This document shows, piece after piece, positions 35,073 to 62,996 of a stretch of DNA of 64,000 nt. Below the pieces are notes generated by a model. It saw only the letters and a program-made list of their open reading frames with translations, had not been told where the DNA came from and ran no database searches. Position numbers and translations under genes: made by a program. Origin of the DNA: Verrucomicrobiota bacterium (lineage in GTDB: Bacteria; Verrucomicrobiota; Verrucomicrobiia; Limisphaerales; UBA9464); NCBI GenBank assembly GCA_017309115.1, contig JAFLEF010000032.1, positions 1 through 64,000 of the forward strand, in the 5' to 3' direction. Every line of letters starts with the position of its first letter. The stretch's first letter is position 1.

Positions 35073-35636
35073 ATGTACGGAATGGTCAATCGCGCCGTGG
35101 AAGACCTCGTGTGCACTAACTTTGGCGAGGAGAAGTGGGAGCAAATTCGACAGAAGGCCGGCGTGGAGGAGGAGTTTTTTGTCAGCAACGAAGGCTATCC
35201 GGATGCCCTGACCTATCGATTGGTGGGAGCGGCCAGCGAGGTGTTGGGTCTGACTCCGGAAGCGATCCTGATGGCCTTTGGTGAACATTGGATTCTCAAG
35301 ACGGCCCGGGAGGGCTATGGTGACCTTATGCAGGCTCATGGTCGAACCATGCCGGAGTTCCTGAGTAACCTGCCGAACTTCCACACCCGGGTGGCCTTGC
35401 TGTTTCCGAAGCTCCAGCCGCCCCGGTTCGAGGTGAGCGATTCCACACCGACGTCGCTGCACCTGCACTACCATACCCATCGGCTTGGCTTGGAGGCCTT
35501 TGTGGTCGGGCTTTTGCACGGGTTGGGCAAGATGTTCGAAACCCCGGTTACGGTGAAACAGATTGGCTTTCGGGGGGCTGATCTGGATCACGCGATTTTC
35601 CTCGTGGACTGGTCGGCGGGCCCGGCCGCCGCATGA
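35073..35636 (+). CDS. H-NOX (haem NO-binding) sensor protein
   Basis: The 187-residue protein is a stand-alone H-NOX domain, a cytoplasmic haem sensor for NO (or other gas). It begins MYGMVNRAVEDLV, as do many H-NOX proteins. The proximal haem ligand is His104 in LPNFHTRVALLFP. The haem-propionate motif Y-x-S-x-R appears as Y133-H-T-H-R137, with Thr in place of Ser. The gene is immediately followed by a HNOBA-domain hybrid kinase whose start lies 11 bases after this stop. Bacterial H-NOX proteins often bind and regulate such a partner kinase. Confidence 0.9.
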   Translation: MYGMVNRAVEDLVCTNFGEEKWEQIRQKAGVEEEFFVSNEGYPDALTYRLVGAASEVLGLTPEAILMAFGEHWILKTAREGYGDLMQAHGRTMPEFLSNLPNFHTRVALLFPKLQPPRFEVSDSTPTSLHLHYHTHRLGLEAFVVGLLHGLGKMFETPVTVKQIGFRGADLDHAIFLVDWSAGPAAA

Positions 35637-35646
35637 ATTTACTCAG

Positions 35647-38600: not shown

Positions 38601-39441
38601 AACGGTGGCCAACAGTCCCACGGCTGCGGAGCCTTCCTTGCCGACCGGGATGGAGCCGAAGCCGACCGAGCGACTGCGCATTCTGGTTGCCGAGGATCAT
38701 GACATCAATCGACGGCTCGCCATTTTCATGCTCGAGCGATTGGGGTACACCGCAGATTTTGTCAGTGACGGAAACGAGGCGGTGGAGTCCTGGCAACGGT
38801 TCCCATACGACGTCATTCTGATGGATTGTCAGATGCCGATGATGGATGGCTATGAGGCCACTCGGGAAATCCGCCGTCGGGAAGCGATCCTACCTCCCAA
38901 CACCCGACGTCATGTACGTATCGTGGCCATGACCGCAAACGCCATGCAGGGCGATCGGGAGAAGTGTCTCGAAGCGGGCATGGACGACTACGTTTCCAAG
39001 CCGGTTCGGATGGAGGCGTTGCAGGCCGCCCTGAAGCGGCATCTGGCGGCCGATCGTTCAGCTGGAGTTGAGAAGGCGGCGGTTCGGTCACTGTCCGAGT
39101 CACTGGCGGAATTGCAGCGCGAGTTTGGTCGGGAAGCGGCGGTGGAACTGCTCGGTTCGTTCCTGCGGGACACCCCCATGCGCCTGGCGGAATTGCATCA
39201 GCTGTCGTTTGGTCCGGACGATCGGGCCTTGGCCCGGAGTGCCCATTCCCTGGCGGGTAGCAGCGGCATTTTTGGTCTGAACGAAATGCGGGAACTGGCG
39301 CTGGAAGTCGAAGCCGTCGCCGGACGCAAGGCCCCCACCGCCAGCAATGCCGTGGTGATGCAGCTTGACCGTTGCTTCGAACGACAGCGACCCGAGTTGG
39401 AACGACTTTTTCACGAACTCCAGCAAGCCCCAACGAATTGA
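35647..39441 (+). CDS. Hybrid histidine kinase with HNOBA, PAS, GAF, HisKA, two receiver and HPt domains
   Basis: The 1264-residue cytoplasmic kinase begins with a HNOBA domain (about 10-140, LVFPFHLILDEQEVVVAVGKSLLKLAP), the partner module of H-NOX. A coiled coil (150-200), PAS (~205-320), GAF (~330-495) and a second PAS (~500-620) follow. HisKA has its His near 629 (VMSHEIRTPMNAIIG) and the ATPase has DTGIGI and GGTGLGLAI. Receiver 1 (~865-975) is partly degenerate: its acidic pair reads VDAHAPS. Receiver 2 (~1010-1135) is intact, with AEDHDIN, LMDCQMPMMDGY and SKPV. An HPt domain ends the protein, with His near 1200 (AHSLAGSSG). ATG 35647 is the start. The stop overlaps the TTG start of the first glycosyltransferase by four bases. 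Confidence 0.92.
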   Translation: MNSVPQTARTTGLTPAQFGLVFPFHLILDEQEVVVAVGKSLLKLAPRLGERPKFSEVLRVSRPQMTFSVAGLREKANALFLIELLGTDILLRGQSLPLEDGRVLFLVSPWLGEGMTFSRLGLNLEDFAIHDPALDHLQAVQAQKMAVADLQRLNLRLKKRSTELNEINERLTAQNQALRKADEVIRARELETRTLALVAALTDNAVIVADAQGRIEWVNEGFTRTTGYTLEEVKGQKPGAILQGPDTDPATIRYMQEHLARGAGFKAEILNYGKGGRRYWLSIEVQPIHDENGRLVNFMAVETEITERVQSERRRNLQYEVSRALAEANSLGAGLTRSLRAVALSLGQVFATYWEWDERNELLRPSSFWHESTTEFGALRARFEQTTLRPGEGLAGQSYRAEQPRWIDSGADSAGLAAEELRKLNLTKALLFNCRVDGKVLGVMEFWGRSQEVPEAELLQMFSVLGSQIGQFVVRKLAELEVQRQRDFALQVMNLMGQGLTITDESSCFVFANSAYGRLVGLAPEQLIGRSPVEFTFPEDRPALAEAARRRLEGEISSYETRLRGASGQVVHALVTGVPRWRGDRVVGTIATITDLTERKHVEDELQRAKEVAESANRAKSEFLAVMSHEIRTPMNAIIGMTGLLRETTLDGRQQEFVEAVRSSGEALLEIINEVLDFSKIESGGLSLEPEDFDLRSLVDGVIELLAPRAFQKGLQFASVIEPDIPAVLRGDDGRLRQILVNLLGNGIKFTSQGEVVMQVSIVSREETHLRLRFAVTDTGIGIDQESQAKIFSPFTQVDSTSKRKYGGTGLGLAICRRLVELMGGTIGFQSELKQGSNFWFEVDFSIGEAEQDTPMPLDLSGMRVLIVDAHAPSRRSVAAILTNWKIAYQEAASGEELLQKLRQAVTAGKPFQLVLIDKVVCDAASDLVAREVMSEIRGSRARVVLALSAVQAVQSPLHPKFDAVVSKPVKQSQLFNVLLTIAQQTVANSPTAAEPSLPTGMEPKPTERLRILVAEDHDINRRLAIFMLERLGYTADFVSDGNEAVESWQRFPYDVILMDCQMPMMDGYEATREIRRREAILPPNTRRHVRIVAMTANAMQGDREKCLEAGMDDYVSKPVRMEALQAALKRHLAADRSAGVEKAAVRSLSESLAELQREFGREAAVELLGSFLRDTPMRLAELHQLSFGPDDRALARSAHSLAGSSGIFGLNEMRELALEVEAVAGRKAPTASNAVVMQLDRCFERQRPELERLFHELQQAPTN

Positions 39442-40631: not shown

Positions 40632-41251
40632 AACCGCGGCTCGTCGCCATCGCCGGCGGCAGCGCCTCGGGCAAGACCTGGCTGGCCCAGCGGTTGGTGG
40701 AACAGTTGGGGTCCCTGGCGACCCGGGTGTCGTTGGACGACTTCTATCGCGACCGCACGCATCTGACCCTCGCGGAACGCAAGAAGATCAATTTTGACCA
40801 TCCCCGGGCGATTGATTGGGACCTGTTCGGATCGGTGCTGGAACAGATTCGCCAGGGCCGGACTTGTCCGGTTCCCCGGTATGATTTCGTGGCGTCCAAT
40901 CGGGAACCAGAGCCGCGTCTGTTCGAACCGGTGCCGCTGGTCCTGGTGGATGGATTGTGGCCGCTGGTTTCGGCGGGCTTGTCCGCCCGGTACGATCTCA
41001 AGGTGTTTGTGGATTGTCCGGCGGAGCAGCGTTTGGCGCGCCGATTGGCTCGGGACACCGTGGAACGGGCCTGGCCGGCGGAGGTGGTGACCCGGCAGTT
41101 TTGGGAGCAGGTGGAACCGATGCACCAGCGGTTCGTGGAACCTCAGCGCGCGGTGGCCGATGAAATTTTGGACTCTCCGATCGCGGTGACAAATCTGCAA
41201 CGGCTTGCAGATCGACTCAAAAAGCTTTCCAGTGAGGGCGCCCAAACATGA
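40628..41251 (+). CDS. Uridine kinase-like P-loop kinase
   Basis: The 207-residue protein belongs to the uridine kinase/phosphoribulokinase group. It has an intact P-loop (AIAGGSASGKTWLAQRL) and the motifs VSLDDFYRD, NFDHPRAIDWD, and the lid-region RRLARDTVERAW with basic residues. Uridine kinases phosphorylate uridine or cytidine in pyrimidine salvage. Here the gene sits inside a polysaccharide locus, overlapping genes on both sides by four bases (ATGA). A role in making UMP for UDP-sugars is possible. Phosphorylation of another small substrate cannot be excluded. Confidence 0.82.
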   Translation: MKPRLVAIAGGSASGKTWLAQRLVEQLGSLATRVSLDDFYRDRTHLTLAERKKINFDHPRAIDWDLFGSVLEQIRQGRTCPVPRYDFVASNREPEPRLFEPVPLVLVDGLWPLVSAGLSARYDLKVFVDCPAEQRLARRLARDTVERAWPAEVVTRQFWEQVEPMHQRFVEPQRAVADEILDSPIAVTNLQRLADRLKKLSSEGAQT

Positions 41252-42000
41252 CCGACGAACAGATCAAGTCGCGGTTGATGGAACGATTGCTCCAAGCCCA
41301 GACGCCCTGGGGACGCACTCGCCTGCTGTGTTACGTCAAATGGAAGCGACTCTCTTGGACGGTCGTTGTTAACGGCACCCTTTTTCTCAAGCGCGCCCTC
41401 GACATCGGGGTCAGCCTAGTTGCCCTCATCCTCCTTGCCCCGGTCTTTGCGGTCATCGCCCTCTTGGTGAAGCTGGATGGCGGCCCGGTTTTCTTTAAGC
41501 AGACCCGGATCGGTCTGCGGGGTCGGGAGTTTAAGATGCTGAAGTACCGATCGATGGTCGTGGATGCCGAGGCCAAGCTGAAGGAGCTTCTGGCCAAGAA
41601 CGAGAAGGCTTCCGGGGTCACGTTCAAGATGAAGGATGATCCGCGCATCACTCGGGTGGGCCGGATCCTGCGGAAGACGTCGCTGGATGAACTCCCGCAG
41701 TTTTTGAATGTTCTGCGGGGGGAAATGTCGCTGGTGGGCCCGCGCCCGCCGGTGCCCCGGGAGGTCGCGTTGTATACCCAGGCCGACCGCCGACGCCTGA
41801 TGGTCAAGCCGGGCATTACCTGTCTCTGGCAGGTGGGCGAACGGGAGGGCCGGTTCTGGGAAATCGGCGACCGCAACTCCATCGATTTTCCCGAACAGGT
41901 GGACCTGGATGTCCGGTACATCGAGAGCCAGAGTTTCTGGGGCGATCTCTGGATTCTGCTGAAGACGGTTCCGGCCATCCTGTTTGGTCGTGGTGCGTAA
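41248..42000 (+). CDS. Undecaprenyl-phosphate sugar phosphotransferase (priming sugar transferase)
   Basis: The 250-residue protein is the short form of the bacterial sugar transferase (WcaJ/RfbP/PglC-type). It has one N-terminal membrane helix (ALDIGVSLVALILLAPVFAVIALLV) followed by the catalytic domain with KQTRIGLRGREFKMLKYRSM, RVGRILRKTSLDELPQFLNVLRGEMSLVGPRPP and KPGITCLWQV. It transfers a sugar-1-phosphate to the lipid carrier and starts each repeat unit. The start overlaps the preceding stop (ATGA). It is followed after four bases by an unusual gene with a degenerate transferase-like C-terminus. Confidence 0.93.
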   Translation: MTDEQIKSRLMERLLQAQTPWGRTRLLCYVKWKRLSWTVVVNGTLFLKRALDIGVSLVALILLAPVFAVIALLVKLDGGPVFFKQTRIGLRGREFKMLKYRSMVVDAEAKLKELLAKNEKASGVTFKMKDDPRITRVGRILRKTSLDELPQFLNVLRGEMSLVGPRPPVPREVALYTQADRRRLMVKPGITCLWQVGEREGRFWEIGDRNSIDFPEQVDLDVRYIESQSFWGDLWILLKTVPAILFGRGA

Positions 42001-43304: not shown

Positions 43305-43607
43305 ATGAACATAACCTCTGAAGGCAGCACCCTGCAGGTGGCCGGCCTGGCTGAGTTGAATGCGGCCAATGCCAGCGCCTTCCGCGATCAAGTCCGGGCC
43401 GCGATCCAACCGCAGCACGTCAACGTGCTGTTGGATTTCTCCCAAACTCGTTTCGTGGACAGCTCCGGCCTCGGCGCCCTGATTTCCATCCACAAATCCC
43501 TCTGCGGCCGGGGCGGGGTGGTCCGCATTCTTAACCCGACCCCACCGGTCCAACAGATTCTCGAGCTGACCCGCATGCACCGCATCTTTGAGGTCACTCG
43601 TTCCTAA
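43305..43607 (+). CDS. STAS-domain anti-sigma-factor antagonist-type protein (first of two)
   Basis: The 100-residue protein is a single STAS domain (SpoIIAA/RsbV type). The phosphorylatable serine lies in FVDSSGLGALI, with D52 S53. Such proteins bind an RsbW-type kinase when unphosphorylated and release when phosphorylated. A second STAS gene follows after six bases, and an RsbW-GAF-RsbU protein after that, so this is part of a partner-switching module. It lies inside the polysaccharide locus, and its target is probably not a sigma factor, because no sigma factor gene is present. Confidence 0.9.
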   Translation: MNITSEGSTLQVAGLAELNAANASAFRDQVRAAIQPQHVNVLLDFSQTRFVDSSGLGALISIHKSLCGRGGVVRILNPTPPVQQILELTRMHRIFEVTRS

Positions 43608-43613
43608 ATCCAC

Positions 43614-43919
43614 ATGAGGACCATTTCACAGGGGGAGACCTTATTGTTTACCGGGTTCGACAATCTCAGCGGGGTCAATGCGGGATTGTTCCGGGAATTC
43701 CTGCGGGCCACGTTGCGGCCTGAGCATCGCTTCGTGGAGGTGGATCTCCAGCGAGCCACCTTCATGGACAGCGACGGTCTGGGGGCCGTGGTTTCGGCTC
43801 ACAAAGCCGTGGCCGGACGAAATGGCGGGGTTCGCTTGAAGGGAGCGCCACCCATGGTGCGGGAACTGTTTCGAATCACCCGGCTCGACACCCTGGTCGA
43901 GTTCGTACCCCAGGCTTGA
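43614..43919 (+). CDS. STAS-domain anti-sigma-factor antagonist-type protein (second of two)
   Basis: The 101-residue product is again a single STAS domain. The usual serine is kept (S53 in FMDSDGLGAVV), but the next position, normally Ser or Thr, is Asp. This could change how the kinase recognises the site. It follows the first STAS gene directly and its stop TGA overlaps a TTG at 43916; the next gene probably starts at ATG 43922. Two STAS paralogues with one kinase/phosphatase suggest separate targets or competition. Which one is the main substrate cannot be told. Confidence 0.88.
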   Translation: MRTISQGETLLFTGFDNLSGVNAGLFREFLRATLRPEHRFVEVDLQRATFMDSDGLGAVVSAHKAVAGRNGGVRLKGAPPMVRELFRITRLDTLVEFVPQA

Positions 43920-43921
43920 TC

Positions 43922-45715
43922 ATGGCGCCCAGCATCAGTTCCTCGCCTGGGCGGGTACTGACGCTCAGTTTTCCGTGCGATCTGGCGGCGGTCCGGGAGG
44001 CCGCCCGCCAGTTCCGCACGTTTCTGAACGATCAGGGGGTCTCCGCCGAGGAGTTGGATGCCTGGGAACTGATCGTCTCCGAGGCAGGCAATAACGCGGT
44101 GGAATACACCCGCCCGGAATCTGTCGGACTGCCGATCGAAGCCACCGTCTGGGTGACCCACCTCAACGTCGAACTCCAGGTTCGCGACCATACCCCGGGA
44201 TTTGATTTGCCGGAGGACACTCCGTTACCCGACTTCGAGGCGGAAGGCGGGCGCGGGCTGTTCCTGATGCGGTCGCTGTCCGATCAACTGCGCTACCTCC
44301 GAAGCCCGGGGGACAACTGCCTGATTGTGCGCAAGGGCCGGTCGGGAATTTCCCCCGCCCGGGAATCAGCGGGGGATTCCCTCCAGATGGCGATCATGGA
44401 GTCGACGTTGCACACCCTCACCGAGGAGTTGGCTGCGTCCTATGAAAGTTTGTCGGCAATCTTTCGATTCACTGCCGAGTTGAACCGCGGCGGAGCGGGC
44501 ACTGAGTTTGTCGACCGCTGGTTGCGGGAATTGATGATGGTGGCGTCGGCGGATTGGTTTGTGCTCCGTCTTTCCAACGACACCACGACTCAACTGCGGG
44601 TGGAGGGTATTTCCCGGGCGGACCTGCGGTTCGAGCCGCTGGATCTGCGGGAAGGCCAGCGCTTGGAATCGTCGGTGGAATTGCAGGCGGTGATGGGACG
44701 TCAGGACATGTGGTTCGACGCCGCGTCTCCGACGGCTGCGGGTGATCCCTTGACCCAATTCGGGGTCGCGCTGGCTGGCTTTGCACATCCGATTTATGTG
44801 AATGAGGAACTGGTCGGTGTCCTGGCAATTGGCCGGTACGCGAGCCACCAGTCGTTCACCGCCGGACAAGTCAACATCATCCACACCTTCGCCGACTTCC
44901 TGGGCATCCAGATTCGCAACGCCCGGATTCAGGAGGGGTATCTGCGTTCGCGGTTGGTCACACGCGAGCTCGAGATCGCCGCGAGCATTCAGCGCTCGCT
45001 GCTGCCTGAACGGCTGCCGGAGCCTCCGGGATTTCGTCTGGCCGGCTATTCGGAAAGCGCCAACAAAGTGGGCGGGGATTTCTTTGACGTCATTCAAATT
45101 GAGAATCAGCAGCATCGCGGGTTGCTGCTGGTGATTGCCGATGTGATGGGCAAGGGCGTGCCGGCCGCGATGTTTGCGGCGATCTTCCGGAGTCACTTGC
45201 ACGCCCTGATCAGTCTGTCGGGTCTGCCGGGTAAGTTGATGTCCTGGCTGAACCGGGCGTTGCATCCGGATCTGGCCCGGGTGGACATGTTCGTCACCGC
45301 GCAGATCGTTTTCCTGGACTGGATGGACAATGAGATCCGGATTGCGTCGGCCGGGCATTGTCCGCTGCTGATTGCCGCGAAGGAATTGGGAATCATGGAG
45401 GTGACGGCGGATGGTATGCCGTTGGGCATCGATTTGCAGATGGAGTTTGAAGAGAAGTGTCTGCCCATGCCGGAGACACTGCGGCTGGCGATGCTGACGG
45501 ACGGATTGATTGAAGCGCGTTCTCCGGAAGGAGAGTTGATGGGGATCGACCGGGTGAAGTCCTGGATGGCGGATTCGATCCGGCGCAATGACACGGCCCA
45601 GACTTCCTGCGAATCGCTGGTGGAACTGGCTCGAACGTTTCAGGCGGATGCTCCTGCTGCCGACGATCTCACCCTTCTGGTGATCACCCGGCAGCCCGAA
45701 GTTGAACTCAGTTGA
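43922..45715 (+). CDS. RsbW-type kinase / GAF / RsbU-type PP2C phosphatase fusion
   Basis: The protein of about 597 residues joins opposing activities. Residues 10-140 are an anti-sigma-type serine kinase of the GHKL family (ELIVSEAGNNAVEYT, DHTPGFDLPED, GGRGLFLMRSLSD). A GAF domain follows (~180-330). The C-terminus is a SpoIIE/RsbU PP2C phosphatase (~345-590) with NKVGGDFFDV, IADVMGKGVPAAMFAA, FVTAQIVFLD and DGLIEAR, and the final DDLTLLV. All metal-binding Asp residues are present. It would phosphorylate or dephosphorylate the two STAS proteins next to it. It resembles SypE of Vibrio fischeri, which regulates a polysaccharide locus, although SypE also has a receiver domain in the same chain. 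A TTG six bases earlier overlaps the previous stop. Confidence 0.9.
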   Translation: MAPSISSSPGRVLTLSFPCDLAAVREAARQFRTFLNDQGVSAEELDAWELIVSEAGNNAVEYTRPESVGLPIEATVWVTHLNVELQVRDHTPGFDLPEDTPLPDFEAEGGRGLFLMRSLSDQLRYLRSPGDNCLIVRKGRSGISPARESAGDSLQMAIMESTLHTLTEELAASYESLSAIFRFTAELNRGGAGTEFVDRWLRELMMVASADWFVLRLSNDTTTQLRVEGISRADLRFEPLDLREGQRLESSVELQAVMGRQDMWFDAASPTAAGDPLTQFGVALAGFAHPIYVNEELVGVLAIGRYASHQSFTAGQVNIIHTFADFLGIQIRNARIQEGYLRSRLVTRELEIAASIQRSLLPERLPEPPGFRLAGYSESANKVGGDFFDVIQIENQQHRGLLLVIADVMGKGVPAAMFAAIFRSHLHALISLSGLPGKLMSWLNRALHPDLARVDMFVTAQIVFLDWMDNEIRIASAGHCPLLIAAKELGIMEVTADGMPLGIDLQMEFEEKCLPMPETLRLAMLTDGLIEARSPEGELMGIDRVKSWMADSIRRNDTAQTSCESLVELARTFQADAPAADDLTLLVITRQPEVELS

Positions 45716-45732
45716 ACCCAACCCCACTGATC

Positions 45733-46107
45733 ATGCCGAAGAAAATTCTCATTGCGGACGACGAACCCCACATGTTGCGGGTGACGGAGTTGAGCTTGAA
45801 GAAGGGCGGGTATGATTTGGTCATGGCCCGCAACGGGCGGGAAGCCATCGAGATCGCCCGACGCGATTTGCCCAATTTGATTGTGATGGATGTCTTGATG
45901 CCGGAAGTGGACGGACTAACGGCCTTGAAGGTCCTCAAGGAGGATCCGCTGACGTCTGGGATTCCGGTGATCATGTTCAGTGCCCGCGGGCAATTGGTGA
46001 CCCGCAAGGATGGCCAGGCATCCGGAGCTGCTTTGTTCATCACCAAACCTTTCAGTCCCACCCAACTGCTGAACGAAGCCCGCCGTCTGCTCGGCGACGG
46101 GAGTTGA
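45733..46107 (+). CDS. Single-domain response regulator (receiver)
   Basis: The 124-residue product is a lone receiver domain with all key residues: the acidic pair in LIADDEPHM, the phospho-Asp in LIVMDVLMPEVDG (about residue 52), Thr/Ser in IMFSARG and the Lys in FITKPFSP. It has no output domain. It most likely relays phosphate from a hybrid kinase (possibly the HNOBA kinase upstream) to the partner-switching module. ATG 45733 (MPKKILIADDE) is the standard start; a TTG seven codons earlier overlaps the end of the previous gene. The frame is in the same transcription unit as the STAS and phosphatase genes. Confidence 0.92.
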   Translation: MPKKILIADDEPHMLRVTELSLKKGGYDLVMARNGREAIEIARRDLPNLIVMDVLMPEVDGLTALKVLKEDPLTSGIPVIMFSARGQLVTRKDGQASGAALFITKPFSPTQLLNEARRLLGDGS

Positions 46108-52413: not shown

Positions 52414-53570
52414 ACGAACCGGTGGGAACACGATTCACGTTGGATGGCAGTCCGGAGTTGGAGGCGCATCTGTCGCGGGTGTGTGCCCGGGTGCGCGCCG
52501 GAGTCCAGGAAATCATTCCGGCGGGGGAACTCGAGGGCATCCTGCTGGGCGGAGGTTATGGCCGGGGCGAAGGCGGAGTTCTGCGCGGTCGGGCCGGGGA
52601 CGAACCGTACAACGACCTGGAGTTTTATGTACTCGCCAAGGGGAACGCGATTCTCGCGGAACGCCGCTACGCGCCGGAACTGCATGAGCTCGGACATCGC
52701 CTAACGCCCACCGCCGGGCTCGAGGTGGAGTTCAAGGTCCTGACGTTGGCGAAGCTGCGGCAGAGCGCCCCATCGATGTTCTACTACGACCTCGTGACCG
52801 GTCATCGCTGGTTGCAGGGCGACGATTCGTTGCTGGTGGGCTGCGGGGTTCATCGCGATGCGAGTCAGATTCCGTTGCATGAAGCCACGCGGTTACTGAT
52901 GAACCGGAGCTCGGGTTTGCTCTTTTCGAAAGAACGTCTGCTGCGGCCGGAGTTCGGTCTGGAGGAGTCCGACTTTGTGGGTCGCAATCTGGCGAAGGCG
53001 CGACTGGCGCTGGGAGACGTGGTCCTGGCCGCCCAGGGTTTGTATCACTGGAGCTGCCGGGAACGACACTCCCGGTTGGAGAAGTTGACCCCGGGGATGG
53101 CCTGGCCGTGGTTGAAAGCCCTGCAGGACCACCACTCGCTGGGACTCGACTTCAAGTTGTATCCGGAGCGTTCCCAGGCGACCCGCGAGACGCTCCAGCC
53201 GCAGCATCAGGAGTTGGTCCAGTTGGCCGGGCAGGTTTGGCTGTGGTTGGAGAACCGCCGGCTTCAGTCGCACTTTGCCAGCTTGCGGGACTACGCGTTG
53301 ACCACCGATTCGCTTTGTCCGGAGACCTCGCCACTGCGCAACCGGTTGGTCCGCATCAAGGCCTTTGGGGCGTCCGCCCTGCTTGAAGCGGGGGCCGATC
53401 GATATCCCAGGGAAGCTCTGTTCCGTAGTCTTTGCCTCCTGTTGTTCGCCGACGTTCCACCCCTGGCTGCGGACGATTTGAAGCGGGTGCAGACCTGGCT
53501 GCGGACAGGAACCCAGGAATTCGCCTCCCTGGTGGGTGCCTATCGCCAGATTTGGGAACGTTTCAACTGA
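52410..53570 (+). CDS. Protein with nucleotidyltransferase-like N-terminus, unknown function
   Basis: The 386-residue protein has an N-terminal segment (GILLGGGYGRGEGG ... YNDLEFYVLAKG, about residues 45-80). This fits the minimal nucleotidyltransferase fold: a glycine-rich helix-start and a following D-x-E metal pair. The remaining region is helical and unrecognised. Minimal nucleotidyltransferases transfer nucleotide groups to small molecules or proteins; the substrate here cannot be told. It overlaps the preceding glycosyltransferase by four bases and is followed two bases after its stop by an acetyltransferase gene, so it belongs to the polysaccharide operon. Confidence 0.65.
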   Translation: MNEPVGTRFTLDGSPELEAHLSRVCARVRAGVQEIIPAGELEGILLGGGYGRGEGGVLRGRAGDEPYNDLEFYVLAKGNAILAERRYAPELHELGHRLTPTAGLEVEFKVLTLAKLRQSAPSMFYYDLVTGHRWLQGDDSLLVGCGVHRDASQIPLHEATRLLMNRSSGLLFSKERLLRPEFGLEESDFVGRNLAKARLALGDVVLAAQGLYHWSCRERHSRLEKLTPGMAWPWLKALQDHHSLGLDFKLYPERSQATRETLQPQHQELVQLAGQVWLWLENRRLQSHFASLRDYALTTDSLCPETSPLRNRLVRIKAFGASALLEAGADRYPREALFRSLCLLLFADVPPLAADDLKRVQTWLRTGTQEFASLVGAYRQIWERFN

Positions 53571-55803: not shown

Positions 55804-57180
55804 TCAGACCTTGGTTGGGGTGCGGGCTGCGCGGGCTTCGCGGCGCATGATTTCCAGTCGGGCGGTGATGGCGAAGAGAACCATCCAGAGGGTCAGATTC
55901 CGTGGTTGAACCAACACCCGTTCGAGCGTGCTTTGGACGTAGTTCAACGCGCAACCCGTGGCGATGCCGAGCGCGAGGCAACGGCGAAAGGAATGGGGAA
56001 AGAAGAGGAGCGCCCGGAAATTGCGCCAGAGGCCCACCAGGATCATGACCAGGTACGAGATCAGCCCGGGATATCCGGTTTCGCCCAGCAGCAGATAGTA
56101 ATGACTCTCGACCACGGCGTTGGGCTTGGACTCGTCCACCTTCATGCCCCGGCCGCGGATCCATTCATAGTAAACGTCGGCGTAGGGATACGGCGGATTC
56201 ACGACCAAGGCGTAGTTGTTCCAGCCGATGCCCAGGGCGCGGTCGGCCGCCATTTCTTTGCAGGCCGCGTTCATGACTTCACGCAACTCGCTGCTGGCGG
56301 TATTCCCCGAGTCGTTGAAGCGGGCAATGATGGTGTCGATGGTCAGCAACAGACCCAGGGCTCCGATGACGGCCATCGCCGCGGTCATGCCGAGTCGGCG
56401 GGCGGTGGGTTTTTCGAGCACGCTCAGACCCAGAATGCCGATGGCGCCGGCTCCGAACATGGCGAGGCCGGCGCGGGAGAGGGTGGACTGCACGATAATC
56501 GCCGAGGCGAGAAAACCCCAGAGCACGAAATTGGCGCCCTTGAAGGGTGGGCCGAGGGCGGAGGCCAGCATCACCATGCCGATCAGAATGGAGTACATGG
56601 CCAGCGGGTTTTGGTGCTCAAAGGTGCCGCGGACCTGGTACATGCCTTCGAGATACTTGAGTTTCAGCACCACCAGGAACTGCCACGTCATGGTGAAGGC
56701 CATCACCCGCAGGAAGAATTGGAGATCCTCGTCGGTGCGCAGGTAGTTGAAGGCGGCGATCATAATGACCGACGCGAAGATCATCTTGTGGGCCGCCATC
56801 CACGACAGGTTCGGTTGGGGCGCGTTAATGATCGAAAGCAGGGAGACGCCGCAGTAGAGCAGGTACCAACCGAGTCCGGGAGGCAGCCAACGAAAGCCCT
56901 TGGGCTGTCCGGTCCAACGCGCGAAAATCAGAGCGATCGCCAGCGCGTGGTTGAAGTAAAAATGGTATCCCTTGGTGTGCCCTCGATACGTCTCGATCGA
57001 GCCCAGGGTCAGTCCCCAGTTTCCCGGCCCCAGAAGACCGTTGATGGTCATGAAACACATCAAGCCGAACACCCAGCGCTGGCCGTTGGGATTGTTCTTC
57101 AGGGCGATTCCCCCGATGGGAGCGGCCACGAAGAACAGCGGCAGAATGATCGCCAGCTTGATGAAATCGGCGGAACTCAA
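55804..57180 (-). CDS. Wzy/O-antigen ligase-like polymerase
   Basis: The 458-residue membrane protein has about ten to twelve hydrophobic segments. The O-antigen ligase/polymerase region is near its centre (STLSRAGLAMFGAGAIGILGL), and a large extracytoplasmic loop follows (about 300-360, ALGIGWNNYALVVNPPYPYADVYYEWIRGRGM, then VVESHYYLLLGETG). It would polymerise the repeat units moved by the flippase. It is on the strand opposite to its neighbours. The only in-frame start downstream of the preceding stop codon is TTG 57180. The antisense 648-residue frame over it is a high-GC shadow. Confidence 0.85.
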   Translation of the reverse strand: MSSADFIKLAIILPLFFVAAPIGGIALKNNPNGQRWVFGLMCFMTINGLLGPGNWGLTLGSIETYRGHTKGYHFYFNHALAIALIFARWTGQPKGFRWLPPGLGWYLLYCGVSLLSIINAPQPNLSWMAAHKMIFASVIMIAAFNYLRTDEDLQFFLRVMAFTMTWQFLVVLKLKYLEGMYQVRGTFEHQNPLAMYSILIGMVMLASALGPPFKGANFVLWGFLASAIIVQSTLSRAGLAMFGAGAIGILGLSVLEKPTARRLGMTAAMAVIGALGLLLTIDTIIARFNDSGNTASSELREVMNAACKEMAADRALGIGWNNYALVVNPPYPYADVYYEWIRGRGMKVDESKPNAVVESHYYLLLGETGYPGLISYLVMILVGLWRNFRALLFFPHSFRRCLALGIATGCALNYVQSTLERVLVQPRNLTLWMVLFAITARLEIMRREARAARTPTKV

Positions 57181-57304: not shown

Positions 57305-58804
57305 ATGAACGGTACTGAACGTAACCAATCGCCGGTGGGCGCCCGGAAGGCACCGGTGGCCATTCTGGGCGTGCCCTTCGACAACGTGACGATGGCGGAA
57401 ACGATTGAGCTGATCGCCGAAATGGTGGCCTCGCGTCAGCCTCACTATCTCGCGACTGCCAACGTTGATTTCGTGGTGCAGGCGAGTGCCGACATCGAGT
57501 TGCGCCGGATTCTATTCGATTCCCATCTGGTGCTGTGTGACGGCATGCCCTTGGTTTGGGCTTCGAAGCAATTGGGCAATCCCCTCCCGGAACGGGTGAC
57601 CGGTTCGGATCTGGTGCCGCGGCTCCTTGCGGAATCCGAGCGTCGGGGCTGGCGCGTGTATTTTCTGGGAGGGACCGAAGAAAGTGTCGCCCAAGCCGCT
57701 GCCAAGACGTTGGAAAAACATCCCCGGTTGAATCTGGTGGGCGCGTATTCTCCCCCGTTTCGGCCCCTGCTTGAAATGGACCACAGCGACATTCTTCGCC
57801 GCGTCACCAATGCTGCGCCGGACATCCTGCTGGTGGCCTTCGGATGTCCCAAACAGGAAAAGTGGATCAACATGCACTATCGGCACCTGGGCGTCCCGGT
57901 GAGTGTTGGGGTCGGCGCGACCATCGATTTCCTCGCCGGGACCTTCAAGCGCGCACCAGTGTGGATGCAGCGCACCGGAACAGAATGGATCTTCCGAATG
58001 CTGCAGGAACCGCGGCGCTTGGTGAAACGCTACACCAAGGATCTATTCATTTTCGGCCGGGCCATTCTCCGGCAGGCGCGGGAACTGGGGTCGCGGCCAC
58101 CGCCGCCAGCCATCAGCGAGGCGGAACGGATTCCCCGGGTGGAGGCCGCGCCGCCCGCGGCCCGCGGGGTTCAGGTCCGAGTGGTCCCGGAGCGTCTGGA
58201 CGCGGCGTCAGCCGCGCAGGTTCGGGAAGATTGGCTGGCGGCTCTGGATGCCGGTCCCTTGATTCTGGAGTTTGTGGGCTGTCGGTTTGTGGACAGCACG
58301 GGCGTCGGGTTGTTGGTGCGGTTGCGGAAGCGGGCGCGCGAGGTGTCGCGACCCTTTCTGCTCGCGGGCGCCCCGGATCCCGTAGTGCGGGCGCTCGAGT
58401 TGATGAAGCTGGACTCCTTCTTTGATCGGGTGGCGGACGTGGCCGCGGGCCAACAACAGATTCTGGGGCGCCCCCCGAACACGCCGCCGGCTTCGGTGCT
58501 TTCGAGTCAACCGGCCGATGCCGAAGTGTTGCACTGGCACGGTGAGGTAACCTCGGCGACGATCAGCATTTTGGCGGAATCCACCGAGCCCCGTCTGAGC
58601 AACGTCGAGAGCGGACGGACGGTAACGATTGATCTTTCCGGCGTGCCATTTGCGGACAGTTCGGGCGTGGGATTCATGGTCCGGTTGCGCAAGCGGTCCT
58701 GGCAACGCGGGGTGAAGGTGGTGTTCATCTCGCCCGGACCAGCGGTGGCCAACGTGCTTCGACTCACCAAACTCGACGAATACCTCCTGGGCAAAAAACT
58801 GTGA
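57305..58804 (+). CDS. WecG/TagA/CpsF glycosyltransferase with two C-terminal STAS domains
   Basis: The 499-residue protein has a complete GT26 domain at residues ~18-265: VAILGVPFDNVTMAETIELI, HYLATANVDFVVQA, LCDGMPLVWASKQLG, YFLGGTEESVAQAA, LLVAFGCPKQEKWI and VGVGATIDFLAGTFKRAP. These enzymes add a sugar to lipid-linked mono-saccharide acceptors. A Pro-rich linker (~270-290) is followed by two STAS domains. The first (~295-385) has FVDSTGVGLLVRLRKR with S331, and the second (~410-495) has FADSSGVGFMVRLRKR with S452. Both serines fit RsbW-type phosphorylation. A partner-switching module lies about 10-14 kb upstream in the same locus. The next gene overlaps by four bases (GTGA). Confidence 0.93.
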   Translation: MNGTERNQSPVGARKAPVAILGVPFDNVTMAETIELIAEMVASRQPHYLATANVDFVVQASADIELRRILFDSHLVLCDGMPLVWASKQLGNPLPERVTGSDLVPRLLAESERRGWRVYFLGGTEESVAQAAAKTLEKHPRLNLVGAYSPPFRPLLEMDHSDILRRVTNAAPDILLVAFGCPKQEKWINMHYRHLGVPVSVGVGATIDFLAGTFKRAPVWMQRTGTEWIFRMLQEPRRLVKRYTKDLFIFGRAILRQARELGSRPPPPAISEAERIPRVEAAPPAARGVQVRVVPERLDAASAAQVREDWLAALDAGPLILEFVGCRFVDSTGVGLLVRLRKRAREVSRPFLLAGAPDPVVRALELMKLDSFFDRVADVAAGQQQILGRPPNTPPASVLSSQPADAEVLHWHGEVTSATISILAESTEPRLSNVESGRTVTIDLSGVPFADSSGVGFMVRLRKRSWQRGVKVVFISPGPAVANVLRLTKLDEYLLGKKL

Positions 58805-59946
58805 AAATCGGCTTCAGTACCACGATGATTCAGCGCGGCAAGACGGGCGTCGCCCAATATGTCTTTGCCTTGTTGAAGGCGATGATTCCCCTGTCCGCGG
58901 GGCACGAGTTTCACCTGTTCGTGCTGGAGGAGGATCGGTCGTTGTTCGACTTCGCCGGCGACGCAATGAAGATCGTGGCAGTCCCGGAAACGGAACGCCC
59001 GGCGGTGCGCAATGTGCTTTGGCATCAGAGGACCCTGCCCGGGCTGATTCGGGAGCGGGGGTTGGACGTGATGCATGTGCCCAGCTACCGGCGGTTGATC
59101 TGGCCGCGTCCGTGTGCCCGGGTGGCGACGATTCACGATCTCGCGCCCTTCCATGTGCGCGGCAAGTACGACTGGAAGCGGATGATTTATGGTCGGGTGA
59201 TTGTGAAGCGCCTGGCCCGCCGGCAGGAGGCGATCATGGCGGTGAGTGAAAACACTGCTCGCGATCTGGAGCAGTTCTTTGGGTTGGGCCGTGATCGGGT
59301 CACGGTGGTTTGGAACGGGATTGACCATGCCCGCTTCCAGCCGGGCGAGGCGGCCACTGCGAAGACGGGCGTGGCGCAGCGCTGGGGACTCGATCGGCCG
59401 TTTTTTCTGTACGTGTCCCGGTTGGAACATCCCGGGAAAAATCATGTTCGGCTGATTGAGGCGTTTGATCAGTTCAAGGCGGCCACCGGATCCAACTGGC
59501 TGCTGGCCCTGGGTGGGAGCGACTGGCATGGCGCGGAGGCCATTCATGCGGCGGCCAAGTCCGCCCGGTATTCGGCCGACATTCGGTTCCTCGGATTTGT
59601 GGATGATCCGTCGCTCCCGGAACTTTATCGGGCGAGTGACGCGTTTGTGTATCCGTCGCTCTTCGAAGGCTTCGGATTTCCGCCGATTGAAGCGATGGCG
59701 TGCGGATGTCCGGTCATCAGTTCCGCCCGTGGTTCCCTGCGGGAAGTGGTGGCGGATGCGGCCGAAATCGTGGAACCGGAGTCGGTGACCGACATCGCGG
59801 GTGCCCTGACCCGGCTCGCGACGGAAGCACCTCGCCGCAACCGATTGGTTGCCACCGGCTTCAAGAACGCGCAACGATTCCGTTGGGACCGCTGTGCGGC
59901 CGAAACGCTCGAGATCTACGAGCGGGCGCGCCGAGCCCGGACCTAA
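58801..59946 (+). CDS. Family 4 glycosyltransferase
   Basis: The 381-residue enzyme shows the full GT4 layout. It has KIGFSTTMIQRGKTGVAQYVFALLKAM at the start, the acceptor-region SYRRLIWPRPCARVATIHDLAPF, FFLYVSRLEHPGKNHVRLIEAFDQF, IRFLGFVDDPSLPELYRASDAFVYPSLFEGFGFPPIEAMACGCPVI, and the E-x7-E pair in it. It starts with GTG overlapping the stop of the STAS-fused glycosyltransferase, which implies tight coupling between them. Its sugar is unknown. Confidence 0.9.
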   Translation: MKIGFSTTMIQRGKTGVAQYVFALLKAMIPLSAGHEFHLFVLEEDRSLFDFAGDAMKIVAVPETERPAVRNVLWHQRTLPGLIRERGLDVMHVPSYRRLIWPRPCARVATIHDLAPFHVRGKYDWKRMIYGRVIVKRLARRQEAIMAVSENTARDLEQFFGLGRDRVTVVWNGIDHARFQPGEAATAKTGVAQRWGLDRPFFLYVSRLEHPGKNHVRLIEAFDQFKAATGSNWLLALGGSDWHGAEAIHAAAKSARYSADIRFLGFVDDPSLPELYRASDAFVYPSLFEGFGFPPIEAMACGCPVISSARGSLREVVADAAEIVEPESVTDIAGALTRLATEAPRRNRLVATGFKNAQRFRWDRCAAETLEIYERARRART

Positions 59947-59969
59947 ACCCAAATGAAGGTGACAGCGCC

Positions 59970-62900
59970 ATGAGTTCACCTGAGACAACCACCACTCCGA
60001 CGCCCCCCGCGGCTCCTGCTGGAGGTGGGCTGGGTGCGCTCATCCCTTTTGATCCACTGCGGTTGGCGTTGGCCGTGTGGAAGGGCAAGTGGTGGGTGGT
60101 GGCGGCAGCGCTGCTGTTGGGTGTGCCGGCGGTGGCCCTGGGTTACTGGCGGTTAGCCACGAGTTACACCGTCAGCGTGCAGCTGATTCGGCGCGATCTG
60201 CCCAACAGTTTTCGGGTGAGCGATCTCGGGGAAGCGTTCAAGCCCCGGCAGCTGTCGGTGGCGAGCATTGTCTCGATCATGCGCTCGCCGAGCCTGCTGA
60301 CCCGGGTGGGCGGGGAAGTCAAACCCCGCATCGGAGCCGGGACGTTGCTGCGTTCCCTGACCATCACGCCGGAAAAGAACACCGACCTCATCACCGTCAC
60401 CCTGCGGGCCGATCGGAGCGCCCCAGCCACGGTCGAGTTAATCAACCGTTATGCCAGCGGGGTTGTGGAGTTGACCAGCAGTCTGCAGCAGCAGGAGGCG
60501 GCGGAACTGGATCGGTTCCTTCGGGAGCAGCTGGGTCGGGCTGATTCCGAGTATGGCGCGATCACCGCCGAGATTTTGCAGTTCACGAAGGAAACCGGCT
60601 TTTACAGCGCTGAGAAGGAGGTTGAGGCGTATCTGCGAGAACTGGGCGAAGCGGAATCGCGGCTCCAGACTGCGGCCCTGGAGAGTGAGACGGTACGGTT
60701 TCAAATTGAAGGATTGGAACGAGAGTTGGCGCGACAGAATCCGTTGCTGTTGGAACTCAGCACCGCCAAGGACCAGTTGAAGACCCTGTTGGTCCGCTAC
60801 ACCGATGCCAATCCGCTGGTGATGGAACAGAAGGCGCGAGTTCAGGCCTTGGAGTTGGAAGTCGCGAATTCGACGAATTCCGTGCAGGAGTTTCAGCCCG
60901 GCGCCAACACCGTCGCCAACGCGATGTTCACCGACCTGGTATCATTGCGGGCGCAGCGGTTGGCGCTGGCGCAACAGGAGAAGCCACTGAAGGACCGATT
61001 GGCGGCCGTTCAGGTGAAACTGGCGGCGATGCCCCAGAAAGACATGCAGTTCGCGCGTCTGCGGGCGAAGCAACAGGCCTTGGAGACCACGCGATCCCTC
61101 CTGGCCGCCCGGCAACGCGAGGCTCAGTTGTTCTCCGAAAGTTCTCCCGGGTATTACCGGCTGTTCGCCCCGGCGACTCCCGACGATGTGGAGGTCAGCA
61201 GCAAGAAGCAGAAGTTGATCATTCTCGGGTTGGCCGCGTTGTTGGCCGGAGCGGGATTGGCCACGCTCGGGTTGTGTGTGCGGGAGGCCCTGGACACCCG
61301 GGTGATTTCGCCAGCGGACATGCGCCGGGTGGCGGGGGCGCCGATGTTGGGATGGCTCGGCGACCTTGGCCTGATGAAGCCGGATCAATTGGCGCTTTGG
61401 CGTTTTCGCACCTGGTCGGCCCTGTTTCGCACCGCCGGCCGGGCAGACAACCGCACTTTGGTCGCCGGGATTGTTTCCTTGGGATCCGGGGAAGGTCGTT
61501 CCACCTGGATCCGGTTGTTGGAGGAAGCCGCCGCCGAGCGGGACTTCCGAACCCTCATTCTCAGCAACGGTGTTTCGGCGGAAGAAGCCGTCCGGGCGGT
61601 GTCGCTTCCGAATGCGTTGCAAGATCCCACCGCAATTACCCAACGACTCGAACGGGAGCACACCGCCCGGGTGATCCTCACGATCCCGAACGAGTGGCAA
61701 TGGGACAGCGAGCAGCGCGGGCAATGGATTCTGGCCTTGCGCGAATGGCAGAGATTGCCCCGGTTGGCTTTATTCCTGGAACTGCCGCCAGCGCGTCGCT
61801 TGGACACACTGTTGTTGGCGGAAACGCTGCCTCAGTTGCTGTGGCTCAGCCGTTCAGGCGCCTCCGAACAGGACGAGGTCAAGGAAGTCATCCGAACCCT
61901 GAAGTCGGGCGATGGGCGGGTCAGCGGAGTTCTCGCCAATTGGGTTCCCGTCATTTTCGACAAACTCCCCGACCTGGGCCGATTCGGTCTTCTGCTCCTG
62001 TTGGGCTGGGGATTGTCGTGGGGGCTGCCCGTACAAGCCCAGGACCCAGCCCCAACCAATTCCTTTTTGTCAGCCACCGCTCGGGGGCCGCAGTTGGCGG
62101 GCTGGCAGCAGCGATTGACCCTGGGCGCCGGGGATCAGGTCAATCTCATGGTCTACGGGCACAAGGATCTGACGCGGACGGAAGTGGCGATCGGTCCGGA
62201 TGGTCGGATCAGTTATCTCCAAGCTCAGGGAATCCAGGCTTCCGGGCTGACCATTGATGAATTGCGGGAAAAGCTGACGGAGGAGCTTTCGAAGTATTAC
62301 CGCAACGCCCGGGTGGTGATCACGCCGGCCTCCTTTCGGAGCAAAAAATACTTCCTGCTGGGCACGGTCATGGATCGGGGTGCGTATCCCTTGGATCGCC
62401 CCATGACCATTATTGAGGCGATTGCCCGGGCTCGCGGTATTTCGACGGGATTGTTAGAGCAGAACACGGTGGAGATTGCCGATCTTCCCCGGGCGTTCTT
62501 GGTGCGGAATCAAAAGCGGGTTCCGGTGGATTTCGTAAGGCTGTTTCAGCAGGGAGATCTATCTCAGAATATTCAGTTGGAACCGGACGACTACATTTAC
62601 TTCCCGTCTTCGGTGCTGAACGAAGTGTATATTCTCGGCTCAGTCTCCAGCCCAGGCACCGTTGGGGTCACGGAGAGTTCGACAGTGGTGGGAGTACTCA
62701 CGGTTCGGGGCGGATTCACCGATAAGGCGTATCGACAACGGGTGCTGGTGGTCCGTGGCTCGTTGAGTCAGCCGGAGACGTTTGTCGTCAACGTGGCCGA
62801 GATTCTTCGCGGCAATACCCTCGACTTCCGGCTCAAGCCAAAGGACATCGTTTACGTCACCGACCGGCCTTGGGCTCGGGCGGAAGAGTTGCTGGATATG

Positions 62901-62996
62901 GCCATCTCGGCCTTCGTGACCACGGCGATGGCGACGTGGGCGGGTCAGAATATTGGTCCATTCATCACCGAGCCCATCATCCCGTCTACCCGATGA
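59970..62996 (+). CDS. Fusion of Wzz/Wzc-like co-polymerase (degenerate kinase) and Wza-like export protein
   Basis: The 1008-residue protein starts with a Wzz domain (membrane helix ~38-58, KGKWWVVAAALLLGVPAVALGYW), a long coiled coil (~155-400) and a second helix (~410-430, LIILGLAALLAGAGLATLGLCV). A kinase-like domain follows (~440-660), but the P-loop reads GSGEGRST with Arg instead of Lys, and the Walker A' and B aspartates are missing. At ~670-690 is a signal-peptide-like segment (FGLLLLLGWGLSWGLPVQAQ). The rest (~695-1005) is a Wza-like polysaccharide export protein with SLBB modules (LGAGDQVNLMVYGHKDLTRTEVAIGPDGRISY; LLGTVMDRGAYPLDRPMTIIEAIARARG). The ATG at 59970 has AAGGTGA seven bases upstream. 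Confidence 0.88.
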   Translation: MSSPETTTTPTPPAAPAGGGLGALIPFDPLRLALAVWKGKWWVVAAALLLGVPAVALGYWRLATSYTVSVQLIRRDLPNSFRVSDLGEAFKPRQLSVASIVSIMRSPSLLTRVGGEVKPRIGAGTLLRSLTITPEKNTDLITVTLRADRSAPATVELINRYASGVVELTSSLQQQEAAELDRFLREQLGRADSEYGAITAEILQFTKETGFYSAEKEVEAYLRELGEAESRLQTAALESETVRFQIEGLERELARQNPLLLELSTAKDQLKTLLVRYTDANPLVMEQKARVQALELEVANSTNSVQEFQPGANTVANAMFTDLVSLRAQRLALAQQEKPLKDRLAAVQVKLAAMPQKDMQFARLRAKQQALETTRSLLAARQREAQLFSESSPGYYRLFAPATPDDVEVSSKKQKLIILGLAALLAGAGLATLGLCVREALDTRVISPADMRRVAGAPMLGWLGDLGLMKPDQLALWRFRTWSALFRTAGRADNRTLVAGIVSLGSGEGRSTWIRLLEEAAAERDFRTLILSNGVSAEEAVRAVSLPNALQDPTAITQRLEREHTARVILTIPNEWQWDSEQRGQWILALREWQRLPRLALFLELPPARRLDTLLLAETLPQLLWLSRSGASEQDEVKEVIRTLKSGDGRVSGVLANWVPVIFDKLPDLGRFGLLLLLGWGLSWGLPVQAQDPAPTNSFLSATARGPQLAGWQQRLTLGAGDQVNLMVYGHKDLTRTEVAIGPDGRISYLQAQGIQASGLTIDELREKLTEELSKYYRNARVVITPASFRSKKYFLLGTVMDRGAYPLDRPMTIIEAIARARGISTGLLEQNTVEIADLPRAFLVRNQKRVPVDFVRLFQQGDLSQNIQLEPDDYIYFPSSVLNEVYILGSVSSPGTVGVTESSTVVGVLTVRGGFTDKAYRQRVLVVRGSLSQPETFVVNVAEILRGNTLDFRLKPKDIVYVTDRPWARAEELLDMAISAFVTTAMATWAGQNIGPFITEPIIPSTR

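What the first reader, a model, noticed from the sequence alone, without database searches (positions are those of the whole stretch)
57305..58804. Glycosyltransferase (WecG/TagA type) fused to two STAS domains
A complete GT26 domain is followed in the same reading frame by two STAS domains, each with the phosphorylatable serine motif (DSTG with S331, DSSG with S452). Known: STAS domains of the SpoIIAA/RsbV type are switched by serine kinases and PP2C phosphatases. The same locus carries a kinase/phosphatase of exactly that type, two free STAS proteins and a receiver. Inference: the phosphorylation state of the fused STAS domains tunes the glycosyltransferase or its recruitment to a complex, giving direct post-translational control of polysaccharide synthesis. 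I do not know of a described example of this arrangement, but I could not search.
Basis: partly seen in the sequence, partly recalled or inferred. Interest (0 to 1): 0.85.

Follow-up and report, generated by a model that had tools for sequence, protein, structure and literature searches.

The report
Phospho-switch fused onto polysaccharide-building enzyme
In many Verrucomicrobiota, an enzyme predicted to help build the cell's outer polysaccharide carries two built-in STAS switch domains, and 27 of 29 sampled close relatives that carry it also encode a kinase/phosphatase that would likely set those switches and so turn sugar-coat synthesis up or down directly.

Summary
57305-58804 (+) encodes 499 aa: a complete WecG/TagA (GT26) domain followed by two STAS domains with serines 331 and 452 at the phosphosite position. 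It is no oddity: all 120 listed homologues share the architecture, within a conserved polysaccharide locus. The fusion travels with a STAS kinase/phosphatase: 27 of 29 genomes of its main clade match it (25 full-length); class-wide, 21 of 28 fusion genomes against 19 of 258 others (p 3e-15). None of 35 GT26 regions without STAS fusion has that kinase or any STAS gene nearby. The serines are kept in 59 of 61 and 48 of 50 divergent relatives. In one clade of seven copies the GT active site is lost while both STAS serines stay, so the STAS pair has a use of its own. Best reading: partner-switching control acting directly on a glycosyltransferase, the kind of output step called unknown for Vibrio SypA. 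Phosphorylation and its effect on the enzyme are untested, and some relatives keep the fusion without serines or kinase. A review mentions one other glycosyltransferase-STAS protein (Anabaena all4160), so joining the two is not wholly unknown; my searches found no paper on this GT26 form. New variant of a known kind.

The parts
57305..58804 (+). GT26 (WecG/TagA) glycosyltransferase fused to two STAS domains; GT core about residues 17-210, C-terminal appendage about 212-262, STAS1 about 288-390 (S331), STAS2 about 398-497 (S452)
43305..43607 (+). free STAS protein A (100 aa, DSSG)
43614..43919 (+). free STAS protein B (101 aa, DSDG); overlaps the next listed ORF by 4 bases
43916..45715 (+). HATPase_c_2 (RsbW/SpoIIAB-type kinase) - GAF - SpoIIE (PP2C phosphatase); best HATPase_c_2 match in the genome (89.8 bits, next 37.7)
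45712..46107 (+). single-domain receiver; listed ORF overlaps the kinase/phosphatase gene by 4 bases
35563..39441 (+). hybrid histidine kinase (PAS, GAF, HisKA, HATPase, receiver, Hpt); proposed input to the receiver (inferred); homologues lie near the module or a fusion copy in several relatives
41248..42000 (+). initiating sugar-phosphate transferase (Bac_transf) of the locus
58801..59946 (+). GT4 glycosyltransferase whose listed ORF overlaps the fusion's end by 4 bases; a homologue follows the fusion in most polysaccharide-locus copies
55804..57180 (-). O-antigen ligase/Wzy-like protein, divergent from the fusion (Pfam 28.9 bits, just under its cut-off 31.7)
59700..62996 (+). open frame holding Wzz-like and polysaccharide-export (Poly_export, SLBB) regions

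Best explanation
One gene joins a complete WecG/TagA-family domain, predicted to be an active membrane-bound glycosyltransferase, to two STAS domains that are likely phosphorylated and dephosphorylated on Ser331 and Ser452 by the kinase/phosphatase encoded in the same polysaccharide locus, which would switch the enzyme off and on. Shown here: the fusion, its catalytic residues, the conserved serines, the conserved polysaccharide locus and the genomic link to the kinase/phosphatase. Inferred: the HATPase domain phosphorylates the STAS serines, the SpoIIE domain removes the phosphate, and the receiver, fed by the hybrid histidine kinase, tips the balance. Inferred: unphosphorylated STAS is the 'on' state, as reported for SypA and suggested for HmpV. 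Inferred: the output is the C-terminal appendage just before STAS1. In TagA that appendage contributes Arg221, is proposed to dock on the membrane and to turn the inactive soluble dimer into the active monomer (PMC6493773, passages), so phosphorylation or partner binding at the STAS pair would gate that docking.
For: Domains, predicted fold and matches. TagA residues Thr37, Asn39, Asp65, Arg83, Gln167, Glu168, Arg214, Arg221 map to T51, N53, D79, R97, Q184, E185, R231, R238; all eight are identical in 50 of 61 distinct rows. Serines: 120/120 and 119/120 near homologues; 59/61 and 48/50 in a wider set. Kinase link: full-length kinase/phosphatase in 21/28 fusion genomes vs 19/258 others, p 2.7e-15; 18/23 vs 15/115 genera, p 1e-9 (with the weak fusion G010 added, 21/29 vs 19/257, p 9e-15); matches in 27/29 genomes of the main clade, 25 full-length; within 20 kb in 13/31 fusion regions (12, G160) vs 0/35 GT26 regions without STAS fusion. 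STAS-STAS-kinase/phosphatase-receiver-fusion run together on one strand in G011_C30, G020_C16 and G003_C8. STAS pair and both serines retained where the GT site is lost. In this genome 4 of 6 STAS matches and the only strong RsbW-type kinase match lie in this locus.
Against: No biochemical evidence of any kind. Free STAS genes lie within 4 kb of the kinase in 22 of 25 kinase regions, so the fused domains may not be its substrates. G076 lacks Ser at both sites (DAAG, DGDG) although a kinase/phosphatase is about 2.4 kb away; G196 lacks the first Ser, and G010 has one weak STAS match whose site reads NNRE; neither has a full-length kinase. 18 of 31 fusion regions show no kinase within 20 kb (several cut by contig ends). 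G307 and G309 of the main clade showed no match at E 1e-25, and none of the 7 distant relatives a full-length one, though L037 has separate kinase and phosphatase genes near its fusion. 19 genomes without a fusion have the kinase/phosphatase. A conserved Ser/Thr at this site does not prove phosphorylation (MlaB, recalled).
Confidence: 0.6

Rival explanations
1. The fused STAS pair is a sink or scaffold: the membrane-bound GT26 domain mainly places two extra STAS domains near the polysaccharide machinery, where they titrate or localise the kinase and so set the phosphorylation of the free STAS proteins, which carry the real output.
For: Free STAS genes lie within 4 kb of the kinase in 22 of 25 kinase regions. 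In seven relatives the GT site and most of the appendage are lost while the STAS domains stay at least as conserved as in intact sisters (72/74% among degenerate copies vs 58/65% among intact sisters). Nineteen of 258 genomes without a fusion have the kinase/phosphatase.
Against: Eight TagA-mapped residues are identical in 50 of 61 rows, so catalysis is normally kept together with the STAS pair; a pure scaffold would not need it.
Confidence: 0.2
2. The STAS pair is a constitutive docking module (MlaB-like) that holds the GT in a biosynthetic complex; the conserved Ser is structural and phosphorylation plays no part.
For: STAS domains can act as adaptors with a conserved Thr/Ser at this site (MlaB, recalled); weak MlaB model match, 39 bits against a cut-off of 90. 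G076 lacks both serines.
Against: Does not explain why fusion genomes so often carry an RsbW/SpoIIE-type kinase/phosphatase or why some copies lie directly behind the kinase operon.
Confidence: 0.15
3. The link is indirect: fusion and kinase/phosphatase are both old residents of the same polysaccharide locus and co-occur by shared descent, with no interaction.
For: Both lie in a conserved locus order, so synteny alone makes them co-occur.
Against: Fusion copies lie with the kinase operon away from the rest of the locus in G011_C30 and G020_C16, with a second fusion elsewhere in the genome; and copies in L019, L020 and L036 sit behind kinase or receiver genes with none of the other probed polysaccharide genes within the fetched flanks.
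Confidence: 0.05

Closest known systems
Vibrio fischeri SypA/SypE (syp polysaccharide locus)
   Same: A STAS protein and a dual kinase/phosphatase in a polysaccharide locus; control below transcription, with the STAS protein as output (PMC10120452, PMC12369376, PMC4517449, passages).
   Different: SypA is a free 105-aa STAS protein whose target is called unknown in the 2023 passages read; SypE is described as one multi-domain response regulator. Here STAS domains are fused to a glycosyltransferase, the receiver is a separate gene and a GAF domain lies inside the kinase/phosphatase.
Nostoc HmpU-HmpV-HmpW
   Same: Partner-switching set with the STAS protein HmpV as output, needed for motile filaments (PMC6495340, PMC8256260, passages).
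   Different: Free STAS protein; downstream effector undefined in the passages read.
Anabaena all4160
   Same: Described as a glycosyltransferase with an N-terminal STAS domain (one sentence in PMC8256260); named among genes on which heterocyst envelope polysaccharide depends (PMC4390870, passages).
   Different: STAS is N-terminal; the type of glycosyltransferase is not stated in what I read; the original paper (Wang 2007) was not held.
Pseudomonas SiaABCD
   Same: A small partner protein, SiaC, activates an enzyme, SiaD, within a phosphorylation pathway (listing and abstract starts of PMC8457831 and PMC7647112).
   Different: Separate proteins; the enzyme is a diguanylate cyclase and the listed pathway uses threonine.
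TagA/WecG (GT26) glycosyltransferases
   Same: Fold, catalytic residues and C-terminal appendage (PMC6493773 passages).
   Different: The solved TagA chains matched here (191-244 residues) have no STAS domains.

Membership tests
WecG/TagA/CpsF glycosyltransferases (GT26) | Pfam PF03808 and TIGR00696 above curated cut-offs | tested here: met
   213 bits vs 27.4; 140.8 vs 69
WecG/TagA/CpsF glycosyltransferases (GT26) | Active-site residues and appendage arginine described for TagA | tested here: met
   Eight mapped residues present in the window protein; Arg224 of TagA maps to a Lys (K241) by the alignment
WecG/TagA/CpsF glycosyltransferases (GT26) | Sugar transfer to a polyprenol-linked acceptor | not testable with these tools
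   Equivalog models not reached: EpsA 193.6 vs 500, TarA 143 vs 350, WecG 101 vs 323; substrate unknown
SpoIIAA/RsbV-type STAS proteins | Anti-sigma antagonist superfamily model above cut-off | tested here: met
   TIGR00377 72.8 vs 53.45
SpoIIAA/RsbV-type STAS proteins | SpoIIAA equivalog | tested here: not met
   TIGR02886 40.8 vs 114.75; not claimed as SpoIIAA
SpoIIAA/RsbV-type STAS proteins | Serine at the phosphosite position | tested here: met
   S331 and S452; which serine is the phosphosite is recalled
SpoIIAA/RsbV-type STAS proteins | Phosphorylated by a cognate RsbW-type kinase | not testable with these tools
   Only genomic linkage shown
SypA/SypE system | Stand-alone STAS output with kinase, receiver and phosphatase in one protein (domain order of SypE partly recalled) | tested here: not met
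   Receiver is a separate gene, GAF in the middle, STAS also fused to a GT
MlaB | NCBIfam mlaB_1 above cut-off | tested here: not met
   39.3 vs 90

The most novel reading that the evidence does not exclude
A serine-phosphorylation partner switch acts straight on a sugar-transferring enzyme: kinase and phosphatase set two STAS domains that clamp or release the transferase's membrane-docking appendage, making polysaccharide synthesis a fast post-translational switch. The design was then re-used, with a dead transferase in one clade and an altered one in another, as a regulatory pseudo-enzyme that in some genomes sits right behind its kinase. By analogy it would point to a glycosyltransferase step as the missing target of SypA-like proteins.
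Probability: 0.35. Interest if true: 0.87.

Novelty: new variant of a known kind. Interest (0 to 1): 0.72.

Why it matters
Some free STAS proteins (SypA, HmpV) are reported as outputs of partner switches with no identified target. Here STAS domains are fused to a glycosyltransferase in an ordinary polysaccharide locus, in 23 genera of the class sample and with traces on contigs labelled as other phyla. Such a fusion hints at what free STAS proteins may bind and makes the question testable with two purified proteins and two serine changes. It would also show an anti-sigma-type switch controlling a biosynthetic enzyme directly rather than transcription.

Tried and rejected
Rejected: frame artefact or chance fusion (120 of 120 listed homologues have it). 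Rejected: broken STAS cores. Rejected: co-occurrence merely because GT26 genes lie near kinases (0 of 35 control regions; one of them, G167_C27, has a lone SpoIIE-domain frame). Considered and weakened: degenerate copies as decoys that pair with an intact enzyme; only 1 of 7 genomes with a degenerate copy (G289) also shows an intact fusion. Considered: a sigma factor as target; no sigma-factor domain was seen among the 22 window proteins scanned, but the genome was not searched for partner sigma factors.

Limits: one search uses the 120 listed of 3440 hits, all close; lists are cut at the weak end, so weak fusions or kinases may be missed. On rechecking I found one weak fusion that I had not counted (G010: GT26, a STAS match under both Pfam cut-offs, GT4); adding it changes 21/28 to 21/29. 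G124 has GT4-GT26 without STAS. Two of the 28 (G209, G232) have undetected or weak STAS, G168 is cut by its contig, G003_C4 lacks the GT part. Five genomes (G167, G011, G020, G172, G216) also stand behind L012, L017, L021, L032, L019, so the samples overlap. L035, among the 29 genomes, is cut inside the GT, so its fusion is not seen. 20 of 35 control regions had about 10 kb flanks, and several regions on both sides are cut by contig ends; some controls are GT26 fused to other glycosyltransferase domains (L209), so 'control' means without STAS. The copies G011_C30, G020_C16, G003_C8 keep the Asp65 equivalent (two of them also Arg83) and may not be dead. Rows dropped: L012, L017, L019, L021, L032 (same places as G rows), L035 (fragment) and the unfused G245 row. 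Gene overlaps rest on the first possible start codons that the ORF lister reports. That the first Ser after Asp is the phosphosite is recalled. Statements that nothing is in print rest only.

Full report
OBSERVATION. The open frame 57305-58804 on the + strand (ATG, 499 aa) is real. Pfam places Glyco_tran_WecG at residues 74-243 with 213 bits and finds two STAS stretches. A structure model from 50 homologues is confident throughout except the N-terminus and the linker around residue 270-290 (mean pLDDT 90.2, pTM 0.88), and Foldseek matches TagA crystal structures for the first part and SpoIIAA/RsbV-type chains for the STAS part. The residues that PMC6493773 (passages read) names for TagA, namely Thr37, Asn39, Asp65, Arg83, Gln167, Glu168, Arg214 and Arg221, map by the alignment to T51, N53, D79, R97, Q184, E185, R231 and R238 and are all present; Arg224 maps to a lysine. 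The transferase thus looks complete, including the C-terminal appendage that TagA needs for activity.

SURROUNDINGS. The window holds a polysaccharide locus: a hybrid histidine kinase (35563-39441) and a GT4 gene, uridine-kinase-like, Bac_transf and hexapeptide genes, then STAS, STAS, HATPase_c_2-GAF-SpoIIE, receiver (43305-46107), then phosphodiesterase-like, GT4, flippase-like, GT4, GT2, hexapeptide, pyruvyl-transferase, Wzy-like, the fusion, GT4, and Wzz and export regions. By the listed start codons, gene ends overlap by 4 bases at 43916, 45712 and 58801, which suggests coupled translation. In the whole genome (7.5 Mb, 95% complete) there are 6 STAS matches, 4 of them here; the two others are a glutaminase-STAS-cNMP protein and a 198-aa STAS protein. 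The best RsbW-type kinase match is the one here (89.8 bits, next 37.7). The only other SpoIIE match is a 514-aa protein that by eye has receiver and PAS-like parts; it was not scanned with Pfam.

HOW COMMON. A protein search returned 3440 hits; all 120 listed carry the same GT-STAS-STAS Pfam set, and organisms, where named, are Verrucomicrobiota. Ser331 is kept in 120 of 120 and Ser452 in 119 of 120, with one Thr. A genome-contig search gave 61 loci. L001-L037 hold fusion relatives, some cut by contig ends (L035 inside the GT), including contigs labelled Kiritimatiellaeota (L030), Desulfonatronospira (L031), Fibrobacteres (L034) and Oscillochloris (L037); L038-L061 match the GT part only. In a wider set of 61 distinct rows the first site is Ser in 59 and Ala in 2; the second is Ser in 48, Thr in 1, Gly in 1 and absent in 11. 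Some relatives have one STAS domain only.

LINK TO THE KINASE/PHOSPHATASE. In 286 genomes of the class I read 28 as carrying a fusion; 21 of these have a full-length HATPase-SpoIIE protein (G033 and G191 have partial matches; G264, G117, G196, G209 and G232 have none), against 19 of 258 others (Fisher p 2.7e-15; by genus 18 of 23 vs 15 of 115, p 1e-9). Rechecking added G010, a weak fusion without the kinase: 21 of 29 vs 19 of 257, p 9e-15. Both lists are cut at their weak ends. Of the 36 genomes behind L001-L037 (L011 shares a genome with L023), 29 belong to the main clade and 27 of these match the kinase/phosphatase (25 full-length; G311 and G316 partial); G307 and G309 do not. The seven distant genomes have no full-length match, but L037 has separate STAS, SpoIIE and HATPase genes near its fusion. 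At locus level, 12 of 31 fusion regions show the full-length gene within about 20 kb, and a 13th, G160, has it 13.7 kb away. The control is 35 GT26 regions without STAS fusion, 15 of them from the very genomes that have a fusion: none has the HATPase-SpoIIE gene or any STAS gene, one has a lone SpoIIE-domain frame (p 1e-5, or 0.004 against the 15 alone). In G011_C30, G020_C16 and G003_C8 the order STAS-STAS-kinase/phosphatase-receiver-fusion is continuous on one strand. In 22 of 25 kinase regions a free STAS gene lies within 4 kb. Where the locus is whole, the order of polysaccharide genes is conserved.

PSEUDO-ENZYME COPIES. Seven relatives (L019 = G216_C70, L020, L022, L023, L024, L025, L036) have lost the Asn39, Asp65 and Arg83 equivalents and most of the appendage, yet read DSTG at both STAS sites. 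All seven genomes carry the kinase/phosphatase. In L020 and L036 it lies just upstream together with a receiver, in L019 and L025 a receiver lies directly upstream, and in L023 a hybrid-kinase homologue does; in the genomes of L019 and L022-L025 the kinase gene is on another contig. A second, separate set (G011_C30, G020_C16, G003_C8), directly behind the kinase operon, is changed at the Thr37 and Asn39 equivalents (G011_C30 also at Arg83 and Arg214); G011 and G020 have another fusion elsewhere. The tree places the two sets apart (100/100 and 99/91; starred branches force at least two changes) and puts the 36 unfused GT26 rows on one side with moderate support 75/82. Among five intact sisters the GT core is far more conserved than the STAS domains (86% vs 58/65%); among the seven degenerate copies that excess is gone (75% vs 72/74%). 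The L036 copy still folds in prediction (mean pLDDT 83.5, pTM 0.70, 18 sequences). So the STAS pair is kept for its own sake. Only 1 of the 7 genomes with a degenerate copy also has an intact fusion, which argues against a simple decoy pairing.

MECHANISM. Known: STAS proteins are switched by RsbW-type kinases and phosphatases; SypA acts unphosphorylated and downstream of SypE, below transcription, on a target called unknown (PMC10120452 passages); TagA is described as an inactive soluble dimer that becomes an active monomer when its appendage docks on the membrane. Inferred: here the switch is fused directly behind that appendage, so phosphorylation or partner binding at S331/S452 would control docking. 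The upstream signal would run from the hybrid kinase through the receiver to the kinase/phosphatase; this is inferred from neighbourhood only.

RESULTS AGAINST. G076 has the kinase/phosphatase close by but neither serine; G196 lacks the first serine and showed no kinase match; G010 has a weak STAS without the serine and no full-length kinase. G124 has the GT26 domain fused to a GT4 domain and no STAS at all, so the step can run without the switch. The kinase has free STAS partners of its own. 18 of 31 fusion regions show no kinase within 20 kb. Nothing here shows phosphorylation or binding.

NOVELTY. Searches for GT-STAS fusions and for Verrucomicrobiota with this theme listed no description that I recognised; one review sentence names Anabaena all4160 as a glycosyltransferase with an N-terminal STAS domain. 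In the listed rows that carry a legible name, sources call the homologues WecB/TagA/CpsF family glycosyltransferase or an N-acetylmannosaminyltransferase. The library lacks most subscription papers, so absence is provisional.

Noticed in passing
L066 913-2760 (own genome, contig C80): Glutaminase fused to STAS and a cyclic-nucleotide-binding domain, 615 aa; its STAS site seems to read DIDR, without the usual serine.
   Followed up: partly
L037 6483-12143: A contig labelled Oscillochloris (Chloroflexota) with the fusion near separate STAS, SpoIIE and HATPase genes and a Bac_transf gene: possible transfer of the module between phyla.
   Followed up: partly
L016: A 4.8-kb contig labelled Akkermansia muciniphila carries a 66%-identical fusion; its genome is 6.4 Mb, so the label or bin looks doubtful.
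   Followed up: no
L101 67-2271 (G010) and L099 1486-3453 (G124): GT26 joined with GT4 in one frame: GT26-weak STAS-GT4 in G010, GT4-GT26 without STAS in G124; both may mark loss of the switch.
   Followed up: partly
G003_C4 (L147-L148), joined 19967-20752: A STAS-STAS open frame without its GT part, in a genome that has another fusion copy; may be a broken copy or an assembly fault. Described only.
   Followed up: no
G051, G033, G179, G160 fusion regions: A one-STAS version of the fusion with a free STAS gene close by, and kinase/phosphatase matches about 14-31 kb away on the same contig (G033's match covers the C-terminal half only).
   Followed up: partly
window 49653-50351 and 52203-53570: Two open frames inside the polysaccharide locus without any Pfam match at E 0.1; they may not be genes.
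   Followed up: no
G056 (L243-L244), G234 (L241-L242), G049 (L247-L248), G148 (L249-L250): The STAS-kinase/phosphatase-receiver module also occurs without the fusion, in G056 and G234 next to Bac_transf homologues; its target there is unknown.
   Followed up: partly
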